Assembly (NCBI GenBank): GCA_958295895.1
Contig: CATQHI010000009.1
Span: 62,001 to 126,000, forward strand
Source: Saprospiraceae bacterium
GTDB lineage: Bacteria > Bacteroidota > Bacteroidia > Chitinophagales > Saprospiraceae
Direction of reading: 5' to 3'
DNA: 64,000 nucleotides
Part shown: positions 44,046 through 50,624 of the stretch, one piece after another
How positions within the stretch are numbered: position 1 is the stretch's first letter
How the letters are laid out: the number at the start of each line of letters is the position of its first letter
The notes under the pieces: generated by a model
Told to the model about the DNA's origin: nothing
The model's database searches: none
The model's input: the letters and a program-made list of their open reading frames with translations, nothing else
Made by a program: the position numbers and the translations under genes

Positions 44046-45743
44046 TTAGTGCAAAATCCGATCTTGGTAGATCAATCCTTCAGGTAGTTCGGATGATAGT
44101 GCGCTATAAAAGTCACCGATCCTGAATGTATTTGGGTTGTTCCCTTTTAAAGAAGCAATATGTCTACTCACTAGCGGAGCAGATATTGAGGGTCCCGTAG
44201 GGAGTATCTAGCACCGCTGGATTGTAGAAGGTTGGGACTTTCTGCAGTAGCGTAAGCTGCCAGGGTTACATTTTGCTCCCCGTAATTCGAAAATTTAGCT
44301 AACGATATCGCGTCACCTCCACCTCCTACCTCATAGGAAGCTACCGTGATGACGTTCAGCTTTTTCTCATGTCCTGCGCCTGCGAATGCGGCGGGCCACT
44401 GAGGCTCAAGGTCGATGTTTCGGCAATCGTTGCCTGCGGACGTAACTATGATCACCCCCTGACTACTCGCGTATTCTACAGCGCATTTGAGGGCTCTTGG
44501 ATATTCATCCTGAGATATGCCCCAGCTGAGATTGATGATATCGGCTCCGTTGACTACTGCTGCGTAAATTGCCGTGACTGCAACCAAAATAGGTTGATTT
44601 TCCATCTTCGTCAAAGATCTTGTAGTGTAATAGTGTCAAAGGTGCCTCTCCGTTGTATCCACCTACAATAGTTCCAGCTACGGAAGTGCCGTGTCCCATC
44701 CGGTCTTCGGGTATATCATCACCATCGATGAAATCGTACCCTATGCTCTGTGGTTTTGAAAACACCCCTTCGATCGTTCCTCCTATTTCGGTACTGCTGC
44801 CACAAATCGTAAAGTTGTTCATTCTCACTCCTGAATCTACAATTGCTACTCTTACTTCATTTTCCTCGTTCCGGCCTACGGTTGTTGGAAGTGGATTATA
44901 GGTGAGTGCACTACAGTGCGAACTGTATTGCCAGCCGCCCCCCTCTGCGACGTAGTTAGGCCGAAGATCGTGTTGGGGTAAGCGAACGAAGAAGTCTTCC
45001 TCTACGAAGTAGTTTGATTGGTGTCTTGTTTGATCCTTCTTCCTGACTGATGGAGGTTCACTGTTAGGATCAATGCCGGCAGGTAGTTCGATCAGAGCAA
45101 GACCCGCTACACCCTGAAAGGGCAAACTGTCAATTACGTTGAGTCCCTGCTCTCGCGCCCATGCCCCTACAAAAGCATTGGGGTTGCAGCTGCTGACAAC
45201 CACTCTCTGAGTTCGCTCGCCAGCGCAATTAATAGCAATCCCATTGATGTACTGATGCTTTGGTTGCTGATCAAATGCGGTCAGCTTGATGGGGGTAGAC
45301 GCTGTTGTGGCGCGTTTGACTTGACTAATGGCTAAGATCAGGTATTCGTACTCACTAGGTGAAGCTGTCACAGTGGTTGAAGGAAACATTGCCTTACTCC
45401 ACTGACGCTGCTGGACTTTTTGTAAGGAGGTGCCCTCTTTAGGCATGCCGAACACCTGGTAGGACATACCAGAACCTCCGTGTTCGAATTGAACGAAGGC
45501 TTCCCCATCGGCAGGTATTTCTAGTCTGACGTGATACTTCAAGTCGTCACCTAGTGCGGCATCTTCTGGGTAGATAGCCCCATCATACGCGTCTTCCACC
45601 CTAAGAACTAAGGGTGGGGCGTTACAGATGCCATCCGCGAAGGATAAGGTTTGAGTAACAGTGCTGGATGTCAGTCCAAAGTCACCTTCCTGGTGAAGGC
45701 AGGATGTAAGGACAAGTAGTATAGCTAGAGTAAGGAATTTCAT
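44046..45743 (-). pseudogene. S8 (subtilisin-like) peptidase lipoprotein A, two frameshifts
   Basis: Predicted surface or periplasmic subtilase. Lipobox in LVLTSC (Cys15), an all-beta N-terminal domain (about residues 30-170), a propeptide-like segment (SCNPNAFVGAWAREQGL ... NYFVEEDFFVRL), then the catalytic domain with Asp in VAIVDSGV, His in GHGTSVAG and Ser in YGTSISAP. The frame breaks near 44606 (one extra T) and near 44189 (one extra C). Read through, the protein ends YQDRILH with stop 44046-44048, so the natural gene is longer than the first frame suggests. Paralogue of the gene at 45975-47751. Lower GC (about 48-50% in counted lines) than neighbours. Confidence 0.8.
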
Positions 45744-45863
45744 AGTGTATAGTCGTGTAGGCTGTTCAGTTCAGTGTCGTGTACGCACTTCTCTCAGGCC
45801 TACAACTAAGGCGCTATGAGTCTAACCTTGTAGTTTATCACTGCAATATTGAAGTTCGCAGTC

Positions 45864-45895
45864 CGAAAATACGCCTTGCCCAGGACTATTCCAAA
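45864..45895 (-). promoter_or_regulatory. Candidate Bacteroidota promoter of subtilase A
   Basis: On the minus strand TTTG (45895-45892), a 20-base spacer, and TATTTTCG (45871-45864), close to TTTG-N19-21-TAnnTTTG. It lies about 120 bases upstream of the subtilase A start in a 231-base gap that holds no gene. Confidence 0.4.
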
Positions 45896-45974
45896 TTTTT
45901 CTTTTTGCTTGCTTCTTCCTTCAACCATGCACCGTACAGTTGAATTGACCGTTCTGCATCAAGCAGTAGCAGAA

Positions 45975-47768: not shown

Positions 47769-47801
47769 TTTATGCTTGATGAAAAAGGTGTGTTACATTT
47801 G
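47769..47801 (+). promoter_or_regulatory. Candidate promoter of the TPR-CHAT gene
   Basis: TTTA (47769-47772), a 21-base spacer, and TACATTTG (47794-47801), a perfect TAnnTTTG box. Transcription would start about 28 bases before the TTG start codon at 47836. Confidence 0.5.
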
Positions 47802-47832
47802 AATTTATCTACCCAGTTAATCATCTATCAAA
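47800..47832 (-). promoter_or_regulatory. Candidate promoter of subtilase B, overlapping the opposite promoter
   Basis: On the minus strand TTTG (47832-47829), a 21-base spacer, and TAAATTCA (47807-47800). The two -7 boxes touch at 47800-47801, so the divergent promoters are back to back. Confidence 0.4.
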
Positions 47833-47835
47833 GTC

Positions 47836-50624
47836 TTGAAGATACTACTAAGCACCCTCTTCTTGTATCTGTGCGTCACAACGGGCTTCGGCCAACCGGA
47901 ATCAAGCCGTATCGAGCTTATGCAGTATGCACACACACTCTATACTGCCGACAGCCTTGAAAAAGCTTTAGTGGCCTATCAAAAAGTAGCTTACGCGAAA
48001 TTTGATGGAAGTCTGCTGGTGGATAGCCTAAGTGGATACGCCCTTCACCGCATGGGTGTCTGCGCATATTATCTTTCTAAGTCGGAAGATGCTAAGAGAT
48101 ACTATCAAGGTGCGATTGCAGTGAGGGACGTCGCTTTTGCGAAACCTCACAACGAGCAAGCGAAATCACGGGTTAATCTCGCTAGAGTTTTCATAGAACA
48201 AGGGGCTTTGGATAGTGCAGCCTACTATCTCCATGCTGCGATAGAGCGTTTAGAAGTAACTGCCCTGCCGGATTTTTCCCTTTACGAGACGGTTTTAACC
48301 GAGCTTATACAGGTAGCCTCTGGACTAGGAGATAGCCAAATGGCATTAGCTGCAGCTCGTCGTGCAAGGTTCATTTTTGAAAACTTTCATGGTTCGATAG
48401 CAGCTGACAAAGCAGCTATGATGTATTACGATATTAGTGTCTCACTTTTGTACCTCGACCAATTTGAACAATCTAAACTCCACGCGCTCGCAGCCCTAGA
48501 TATAAACCAAGGGTTAGGAGACAACCGCCGAGTTGGGCTTTGCTATCAATCTCTAGCGGCCATTGCTGAGCGATCAAATAATTTTCAGGATGCCATTCAG
48601 TATCTTCAACTTGCATTAGTGTTCACACTAACTGAGGATCAGCAGTCACTTAGCTACCTCCACCATTCATTAGCACGTAATCAACTTCACCTCGGCAACC
48701 TACCTGCCGCCGAAACCCACCTTCGCACCGCAGAAGCCAACGTCCCCCCCGGCGACCTTCTCCACTCTCACAACGCCAAACTACGGGCCCTACTACTGGC
48801 AGCCTCTGGCAAGCCAGCACCCGCCCTGAAGTTCTTCAATACCGCCGTCGCGCTTCTCGACAGCAGCGGTACCTACGAGGGTGACCTACTGGTCGTACAC
48901 CCGCCGGCAGTGATAGAAGCTAACCTTGACCTCCTTGCCCTTCACCTCACTGACCGCGCCGCTTTCCTAGCTGACCAGGGCCGCTACCGAGATGCACTAC
49001 GAGACTACGGAACCGTGCTCCAAATTCGCGAAAGGTTACGGCGCGACGTGAGTAGCGGGGGAAGTCGTGAACGCCTGAGTACCAACCTACGTCCACTACT
49101 TGACGATGCTATAGAGGTATGTCACAGACTCTATAAGCAGGGACAAGAAGAAATGGCCTGGCAAGCTCTCCAGTTCAGCGAATGGGCCCGGGCCTACGAC
49201 CTGCTACGGAGCTACCGTCGGGGCGGGGCTGCAAATGTAGAGATGGAACCGTGGAGCAAAATTGCTAAATTGGAACGCCAGGTTGTTATGGATTCAACGG
49301 TACAAACGGCCCTGTCAGATGCTCGCTTACGCCTTGACCGTTTAGTGCGGCGACAGGGCATTCACGACACCACCGCCCTTCAACCCTTGGACCATGATCG
49401 CTTACAGAACTATCTCAGCCAGCACCACGCCCGACTCCTCCTCTACCACCTCACCGACAGCAGCGCCTACCGCTTCGCACTAGCCGAAGACGGACAGCTC
49501 GCCCTCGAACGGCTCCCCGTCGTCGGAGCCGAACTGACCGAGGCCGTGATCCAGTGGCGTACGGACATTGCTGAGTCCGCCTACCGCCGCAAGTCAATGC
49601 GTAATGGGCAAGATCAGGAAGCGCTGGACCGATCCTACCTAACCGATGGACAACAACTAGCGGCCAAGCTCGACCTACGGGCCGGGGCCTTGCCTACGAT
49701 CCTCATTCCCGACGGTATTCTGCACGCGCTACCCTTCGCGGCCCTTCCCCTGGGGCAAGCCACTGCGCATACCCTTCACTACGATAGTATAGATTACCTA
49801 GGGGACCATGCGCCCCTAAGCTTCGGCTACTCTATCGCTACCCTACTAGCGCAGGAGGAACCCCGTCCCGATACCTATTCGCTCGATTTATTAGCCTTCG
49901 CACCTGCGTTCGCGCCCAATACCCTGCCTTTGCTACCGCTAAGTCACGAGGAAGCAGCTGCCGTATGCGATCACTATACCAGTCACGAATTACTGGTGGA
50001 CGGGCAGGCCAACCGGACCAACTTCACTACCCGGCGCCCGCTGCCCGCATCCTACACCTCTCCACCCACGGCTCGGCTGACCTGGAAAACCCCAACCTCA
50101 GCTACGTCGCCTTCACCCAGACCGGCGGCCCCAGTGACCCCGACGAACGCCTCTACTACAACGAGCTCTCCGCCCTGCACCTGCCGGCCGAGCTGGTGGT
50201 GCTGTCGGCCTGCGAAACCAGCATCGGCAAGCCCGTGCCCGGAGAAACCGTCGCCAGTCTGGCCACCGCCTTTGCCGCCGCCGGGGCCCACTCCACCCTC
50301 ACTACGCTGTGGCAGGTCGACGAGCGGGCCACGCTGGAACTCGTGCGGCACTTTTACGACCGGCTGGCGCAGGGCGGCGGGCGGCAGGAGGCGCTGTACT
50401 ACGCCCAGCAGCGGTTGCGGCACTCGGCCGATTATGCGCATCCGTACTACTGGGCGGGCCTGGCGCTGCACGGGAGTATCGGTCCCCTTTCGACCAGCTC
50501 TGCACCGGCGGCCCCGCCCTACTGGTTGCCCGTTGCTGTACTGCTGGTGGCGGCGGGAATCGGTTTAGCTTTGCGGGCCAAACGAAATAGCCATGCCGAG
50601 CAGCGAACTGCGCCTGTACAATAG
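47836..50624 (+). pseudogene. Secreted, membrane-anchored TPR-CHAT protease, one frameshift
   Basis: Caspase-like CHAT protease of about 929 residues. The TTG start (47836) is chosen because it gives a signal peptide (KILLSTLFLYLCVTTGFGQ). TPR repeats fill residues 25 to about 330, a helical linker follows, and the CHAT domain has both catalytic residues: His in HLSTHG (codon 50067-50069) and Cys in LSACETS (codon 50211-50213). A helix [19 protein letters not shown] plus basic tail anchors the C-terminus, so the protease domain is periplasmic. The frame is lost near 50031 (CCGGCG where CCGGGCG fits). The 3' end overlaps cysS by 32 bases. Base composition shifts near 48690. Confidence 0.82.

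What the first reader, a model, noticed from the sequence alone, without database searches (positions are those of the whole stretch)
44046..50624. Candidate extracytoplasmic protease system: two lipoprotein subtilases divergent from an exported TPR-CHAT protease
Seen: two tandem paralogous S8 peptidases with lipoboxes and intact Asp/His/Ser triads after frame repair, and a divergently transcribed CHAT protease with His/Cys intact, TPR repeats, a signal peptide and a C-terminal membrane anchor. Known: CHAT domains are caspase-like and TPR-CHAT proteins can be activated proteases (for example in type III-E CRISPR). Inference: here all three proteins act outside the cytoplasm, so a protease cascade at the envelope (zymogen activation, contact-dependent or defence signalling, or regulated surface shedding) is plausible. 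The S8 N-terminal beta domain is not one I recognise.
Basis: partly seen in the sequence, partly recalled or inferred. Interest (0 to 1): 0.75.

Follow-up and report, generated by a model that had tools for sequence, protein, structure and literature searches.

The report
Paired envelope proteases: subtilase and CHAT
In a Neolewinella-like bacterium, two tandem genes for subtilisin-type proteases with lipoprotein signals lie back to back with the genome's only detected gene for a caspase-like (CHAT) protease predicted to sit in the cell envelope; the pairing recurs across relatives, often beside genes of a stress-gene switch, so it is likely a protease-based signalling module rather than a chance neighbourhood.

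Summary
At 44049-50624 lie two tandem S8 subtilases (-) and a divergent TPR-CHAT protein (+). All three frames are broken, but so is cysS next door, and a near relative reads through the CHAT break, so sequencing indels are likely. Genus-wide, 40 of 135 CHAT genes have an S8 within 5 kb (2.9 expected), and S8 and CHAT trees match beyond species history. Of 27 other S8-CHAT pairs, 22 lie with an ECF sigma gene and a membrane TPR anti-sigma-like gene; the window pair does not. I read it as a sigma-less branch of an envelope protease-signalling module; who cleaves whom is untested. The S8 carries its own propeptide-like domain, which weakens the idea that CHAT must activate it; 8 of 19 orthologous S8s show no lipobox; in other genera of the family the link is weak (8 of 134, 3.3 expected). 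Nine paper searches on the theme found no description of the module.

The parts
44049..45743 (-). S8-A: lipoprotein-type subtilase, tandem paralogue; three frame pieces (44508-45743, 44174-44635, 44049-44207)
   Evidence: Pfam PF00082 on two pieces; S8 HMM hits on all three pieces
45699..45701 (-). S8-A lipobox cysteine codon (LTSC)
   Evidence: sequence
45975..47751 (-). S8-B: lipoprotein-type subtilase; frame pieces 45975-47150 (open to 47249), 47147-47329, 47329-47751
   Evidence: Pfam PF00082 E 4e-31; 85% identical P0001 named S8 family serine peptidase of Neolewinella sp.
47692..47694 (-). S8-B lipobox cysteine codon (VLGC)
   Evidence: sequence
47300..47690 (-). S8-B N-terminal beta domain (approximate limits, by homology), unrecognised by sequence
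   Evidence: no Pfam hit for 4 homologous domains at E<=5; no convincing PDB sequence match; beta strands in the model of homologue P0003
46988..47260 (-). S8-B propeptide-like domain (approximate limits, by homology)
46089..46823 (-). S8-B catalytic domain with Asp 46802-46788, His 46661-46647 and Ser 46154-46140 motifs
47752..47835 (.). 84-base divergent intergenic region between S8-B and CHAT
   Evidence: ORF limits
47836..50624 (+). TPR-CHAT protein, one frame break near 50030
   Evidence: Pfam TPR and CHAT; CHAT HMM on both pieces
47836..47895 (+). predicted signal peptide ending ..GFGQ
   Evidence: sequence; hydrophobic N-segment in 14 of 14 window-type pairs of other genomes
49657..50474 (+). 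CHAT domain; His codon 50067, Cys codon 50211
50517..50585 (+). C-terminal membrane helix and basic tail, tail predicted inside
   Evidence: sequence

Best explanation
Two lipoprotein-type subtilases and a TPR-CHAT protein with a predicted signal peptide and membrane helix form a gene pairing that is conserved and co-diversified in the genus and likely works as an envelope signalling module, in which a predicted surface or periplasm-facing subtilase would feed a regulated caspase-like protease in the periplasm. Shown here: the anatomy, the conserved adjacency, the matching S8 and CHAT trees, and the frequent presence beside other pairs of an ECF sigma gene plus a TPR anti-sigma-like gene with a membrane helix. 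Inferred: the CHAT protease, held at the inner membrane with its TPR arm in the periplasm, would be switched on by a partner or product of the subtilase and would cut a periplasmic target; in the sigma-bearing loci the natural target is the periplasmic TPR part of the anti-sigma, which would release the sigma factor. In this genome no sigma pair lies near; a stand-alone sigma plus TPR anti-sigma-like pair on another contig is a possible partner in trans. Untested: cleavage, order of action, substrate and stimulus.
For: Adjacency: S8 orthologues in 16 of 21 genus genomes, orthologous CHAT within 15 kb in 13 of 16 (distances). Genus: 40 of 135 CHAT genes within 5 kb of an S8, 2.9 expected by random placement, in 20 of 21 genomes. 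Co-diversification: distance r 0.79 over 41 pairs, 0 of 5000 permutations; 0 of 5000 when partners are swapped only within a genome, mean r 0.26. Sigma and anti-sigma-like genes both within 6 kb of CHAT in 22 of 27 other S8-CHAT pairs against 4 of 15 hand-picked CHAT genes without an S8. Sigma: Pfam Sigma70_r2 above cut-off in 3 of 3, TIGR02937 above cut-off in 2 of 3. Anti-sigma: membrane helix plus TPR and an NCBIfam anti-sigma match below its cut-off (E 3.5e-6) in 1 of 3 tested. One window-type divergent pair (L079) is followed by both. Same gene set in Lacinutrix, Zobellia and Euzebyella, with lipobox S8. CHAT topology. Stand-alone sigma/anti-sigma in G000.
Against: No sigma or anti-sigma HMM hit in the window, and only 1 of 12 other window-type paired loci has both. 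Three of 16 genomes have both genes unlinked (G116, G193, G201). 8 of 19 orthologous S8 show no lipobox, so both proteases may not share a compartment everywhere. In 14 other genera of the family the link is weak: 8 of 134 CHAT genes against 3.3 expected. The S8 propeptide-like domain makes an outside activator unnecessary. 4 of 15 CHAT genes without S8 also lie near sigma/anti-sigma, so sigma may belong to CHAT rather than to the pair. The anti-sigma naming rests on weak matches. No expression or biochemical data.
Confidence: 0.45

Rival explanations
1. The subtilases are surface effectors (degradation, antagonism or shedding) and the TPR-CHAT protein is their maturase, inhibitor-releaser or quality control, with no signalling role.
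For: Other partner S8s are exported: Por_Secre_tail found in 5 of 10 non-window-type S8 scanned (3 above cut-off) and in L055; lipoboxes in both window copies; tandem S8 duplication as in G206 and G207 suits an effector under diversification.
Against: Propeptide-like domain suits self-maturation; the frequent sigma/anti-sigma neighbours point to regulation; some S8 show no export signal.
Confidence: 0.25
2. A defence or programmed-death system: a caspase-like protease at the envelope armed by the subtilases after phage or rival contact.
For: TPR-CHAT protease Csx29 acts in type III-E CRISPR, cutting an inhibitor of an ECF sigma factor (PMC10028731, passages read); PADLOC subtilase model E 1e-14 on S8-B, over the general catalytic region, and BovA E 7e-6 on the CHAT piece.
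Against: The PADLOC matches cover general S8 and CHAT domains; the neighbours scanned are housekeeping genes such as cysS, an Na/H exchanger, a Mur ligase and Hsp90; vertical co-diversification in the genus is unlike a mobile defence island.
Confidence: 0.12
3. Neighbours kept by shared regulation or gene-order inertia only, with no functional contact between the proteins.
For: Three of 16 genomes have them unlinked; orientation is not kept; weak link in other genera.
Against: Layout changes while proximity within 15 kb is kept in 13 of 16 genomes; within-genome partner swaps never reach the observed tree match in 5000 trials; the pair recurs in Flavobacteriaceae.
Confidence: 0.15

Closest known systems
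Craspase: type III-E CRISPR TPR-CHAT protease Csx29 with Csx30 and CASP-sigma (PMC10028731)
   Same: TPR plus CHAT, His/Cys pair aligns; in the wider family an ECF sigma gene and a likely inhibitor gene lie beside it
   Different: predicted signal peptide and membrane helix, S8 partner, Csx29 model far below its cut-off (36 of 300 bits), no sigma pair in the window
ECF sigma control by envelope proteolysis of a membrane anti-sigma (RseA by DegS, named in PMC10028731)
   Same: sigma, membrane anti-sigma-like and exported proteases encoded together in 22 of 27 other pairs
   Different: proteases are S8 and CHAT; cleavage untested; the window pair lacks the sigma genes
Subtilases with N-terminal propeptide (pro-subtilisin E, pro-Tk-subtilisin)
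   Same: catalytic and propeptide-like domains align
   Different: extra N-terminal beta domain and lipobox
Surface lipoproteins of Bacteroidota with an export signal after the cysteine (PMC5080379)
   Same: lipobox; in Dokdonia the partner S8 reads CEKDD, fitting the published optimum
   Different: the two window copies (CDGCSND, CLHQEG) do not fit that optimum

Membership tests
CHAT domain proteases (PF12770) | Pfam CHAT above cut-off | tested here: met
   145 bits against cut-off 24 on 49965-50621
CHAT domain proteases (PF12770) | His and Cys active-site residues | tested here: met
   align with solved TPR-CHAT chains
CHAT domain proteases (PF12770) | peptidase activity | not testable with these tools
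   needs an assay
Csx29 / Craspase | NCBIfam NF041237 above cut-off | tested here: not met
   36 bits on the C-terminal piece, cut-off 300
Csx29 / Craspase | Cas7-11 (gRAMP) and CRISPR array beside it | not tested
   no Cas or array search was run
Peptidase family S8 | PF00082 and Asp/His/Ser motifs | tested here: met
   Ser motif of S8-A is cut by a frame break
Peptidase family S8 | propeptide-type N-domain (common, not universal) | tested here: met
   homologue P0003 model aligned to pro-subtilisin
S8-TPR-CHAT gene pair described here | orthologous S8 and CHAT as neighbours | tested here: met
   13 of 16 genomes within 15 kb, the window included
S8-TPR-CHAT gene pair described here | ECF sigma and TPR anti-sigma in the locus | tested here: not met
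   no hit in the window; 1 of 12 other window-type paired loci
Surface lipoproteins with LES | C-X-K-(D/E)2 after the lipobox cysteine | tested here: not met
   window copies read CDGCSND and CLHQEG
Type IX secreted proteins | Por_Secre_tail at the C-terminus | tested here: inconclusive
   none on the window S8 pieces scanned; the last piece of S8-A, 44049-44207, was not scanned

The most novel reading that the evidence does not exclude
An undescribed signalling system of Bacteroidota: a surface subtilase and an inner-membrane, periplasm-facing TPR-CHAT caspase-like protease relay an outside signal by cutting a TPR anti-sigma, freeing an ECF sigma factor. It would be an envelope counterpart of Craspase, of which the window pair is a branch that has shed its sigma switch or works in trans.
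Probability: 0.3. Interest if true: 0.8.

Novelty: new variant of a known kind. Interest (0 to 1): 0.6.

Why it matters
The CHAT protease described in the paper I read (Csx29) works inside the cell. Here a class predicted to face the periplasm is tied, by gene order and matched evolution, to exported subtilases and often to ECF sigma switches. If true, it links protease signalling of the Craspase kind to ordinary envelope sensing, and named isolates carry the genes for tests (Neolewinella persica, N. aurantiaca, N. marina).

Tried and rejected
Chance neighbours: rejected for the genus. Membership in Csx29/Craspase: rejected on the NCBIfam cut-off. Known anti-phage system: PADLOC matches only over general S8 and CHAT regions. 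Pseudogenes: unlikely, since cysS is broken too (Pfam finds its catalytic and C-terminal parts in three frames), relatives are open, and P0122 reads through the CHAT break; P0001, the nearest S8, is itself listed at only 423 aa, so it does not settle the S8 frames. Conserved pairing of a CHAT of about 870 aa with a protein of about 700 aa: in L167 that protein is ribosomal protein S1 (PF00575), ordinary synteny. N-terminal beta domain: four homologous domains gave no Pfam hit at E<=5 and a six-row profile found one PDB row at E 0.99; the fold comparison did not test that part, so no claim that its fold is new. The CHAT model was poor (mean pLDDT 58.3, CHAT part mostly under 50) and was not used. 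No tool for complexes was at hand. Family-wide base rate was tested and is weak; there the S8 list was cut at 139 of 186, and two further pairs are visible (G003:C25, G015:C124).

Limits of my own scripts: genes were called as longest ORFs, so starts are uncertain; one of four sigma seeds was a wrong 96-aa ORF, although sigma identity was checked apart by Pfam and NCBIfam for L055, L058, L053 and L102; the anti-sigma HMM contains TPR repeats and can ring on other TPR proteins (for example a 164-aa ORF in L178). The 15 control CHAT genes are 15 of the 95 without S8, picked by hand, and 8 of the 15 are the S1-linked group, so the control is narrow. Expected counts assume random placement. The CHAT and S8 rows were copied into scripts by hand; the S8 list was cut off, so 40 of 135 is a lower bound. 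The 88 S8 genes were drawn by likeness to A1 and include loci fetched twice. The count 8 of 19 without lipobox is by eye with a lenient lipobox; the script count on 14 paired S8 was 7 with a lipobox. A wider stretch of SD302 (L097) shows one weak sigma hit (42 bits) 4.3 kb from its S8 and no anti-sigma.

Papers: nine searches on the theme found no account of S8-CHAT-sigma loci; a tenth was on lipoproteins. Only open-licence papers are held. PMC10028731 and PMC5080379 were read as passages; all others were seen in listings only. An ECF reclassification paper (recalled) is not held.
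Full report
What is there. The window is part of contig C9 of a 4.77-Mb, 35-contig genome. The region holds two minus-strand S8 genes and a plus-strand TPR-CHAT gene, with 84 bases between S8-B and CHAT. Pfam domains, lipoboxes, triads, His/Cys, predicted signal peptide and membrane helix are as listed under parts. The two S8 are paralogues: S8-B matches S8-A pieces at 46% and 63% identity. The CHAT His and Cys line up with those of solved TPR-CHAT chains.

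Broken frames. All three genes are split. cysS at 50593-52093 is split in three as well. The nearest protein relatives, 85% (S8, P0001) and 91% (CHAT, P0122), are listed with the same 4,584,293-base contig of a Neolewinella sp., and P0122 passes unbroken through the window's CHAT break. Indels from sequencing are the likely cause.

Who the relatives are.

Does the pair recur? In 199 family genomes at E<=1e-25, G000 included, the CHAT query rang in 4, all of the window's genus, and the S8 query in 15. In all 21 genus genomes held, the S8 orthologue (150 bits or more) occurs in 16; an orthologous CHAT lies within 15 kb in 13 of these and within about 4 kb in 12 (distances). Directly divergent: G000, G205, G199; divergent with genes between: G209; the rest co-directional or clustered. 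Unlinked: G116, G193, G201. Two metagenome contig lengths (5512 and 8309) also appear for both an S8 and a CHAT homologue.

Genus-wide test. Of 135 CHAT genes in 21 genomes, 40 have an S8 within 5 kb; random placement gives 2.9. 27 are S8 then CHAT in one direction, 9 CHAT then S8, 3 divergent, 1 convergent. G000 has a single CHAT gene by Pfam search, seen as two frame pieces.

Do partners evolve together? For 41 pairs the S8 and CHAT distances correlate at 0.79, and at 0.75 within the 14 window-type pairs. Swapping partners only within the same genome, which keeps species history, gives mean r 0.26, maximum 0.63, and never the observed value in 5000 trials (33 of the 41 pairs lie in the 11 genomes with more than one pair). 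Window-type S8 and window-type CHAT each have a window-type nearest neighbour in 14 of 14.

The sigma link. All 27 non-window-type S8-CHAT pairs were mapped: 22 have both an ECF sigma gene and a TPR anti-sigma-like gene within 6 kb of CHAT, 17 of them as one co-directional run sigma, anti-sigma, S8, CHAT. Of 15 hand-picked CHAT genes without S8 nearby, 4 have both. The anti-sigma-like protein has one membrane helix after basic residues, then TPR repeats; its N-terminal part matches the NCBIfam anti-sigma model below cut-off (E 3.5e-6) in one of three tested, the other two not. Of 12 other window-type paired loci only L079 has both sigma genes; the window has neither. G000 keeps a stand-alone sigma and TPR anti-sigma-like pair on contig C2 beside a folB-like gene (the folB name is my reading of the sequence).

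Beyond the genus. Of 15 S8 genes in loci of other family members, 11 have CHAT within 6 kb and 9 a sigma or anti-sigma hit; these loci were chosen by S8 likeness. Lacinutrix, Dokdonia, Bizionia, Zobellia, Euzebyella and Aureispira loci also pair S8 with CHAT; of all 88 S8 genes in the 65 named loci 26 have CHAT within 6 kb, genus loci and repeats included. Taken from the CHAT side in 14 other genera of the family, the link is weak: 8 of 134 against 3.3 expected. So this is a trait of certain CHAT lineages, not of CHAT proteins at large.

Where the proteins sit (prediction by hydropathy only). Window-type CHAT: N-terminal segment 14 of 14, C-terminal segment 13 of 14; other pairs 24 of 27 and 21 of 27. 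S8: both window copies have a lipobox, 11 of 19 orthologues by eye, 7 of 14 paired ones by script. Several S8 without a lipobox start right behind the upstream gene and have no room for a signal peptide. Partner S8s elsewhere carry a T9SS tail: 5 of 10 scanned, 3 above cut-off.

Verdict.

Noticed in passing
window 50593-52093: cysS is frame-broken in three pieces; a weak HhH-GPD glycosylase match at 43399-44013 (below cut-off) also looks split. A sign of indel errors in this assembly.
   Followed up: partly
window 39680-42614: An MbnP-like gene (PF20243) beside two di-haem MauG-type peroxidase genes (PF03150), the second one split at about 41400.
   Followed up: no
L177 7443-8804 and L180 4816-6290: Stand-alone ECF sigma plus TPR anti-sigma-like pair without S8 or CHAT in the fetched stretch, kept in G000 and Lewinella sp. 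W8.
   Followed up: partly
L105 9563-17343 and L107 9566-16439: In a Holophagae MAG and Acanthopleuribacter pedis, tandem S8 genes, most with signal-like N-termini, converge on a CHAT gene whose product shows no signal peptide.
   Followed up: no
L084 5262-10769: A 1835-aa protein with two CHAT domain matches.
   Followed up: no
L164-L167, L169, L171-L173: A CHAT gene of about 870 aa follows a gene of about 700 aa that is ribosomal protein S1 where tested (L167), a steady gene order in the genus.
   Followed up: partly
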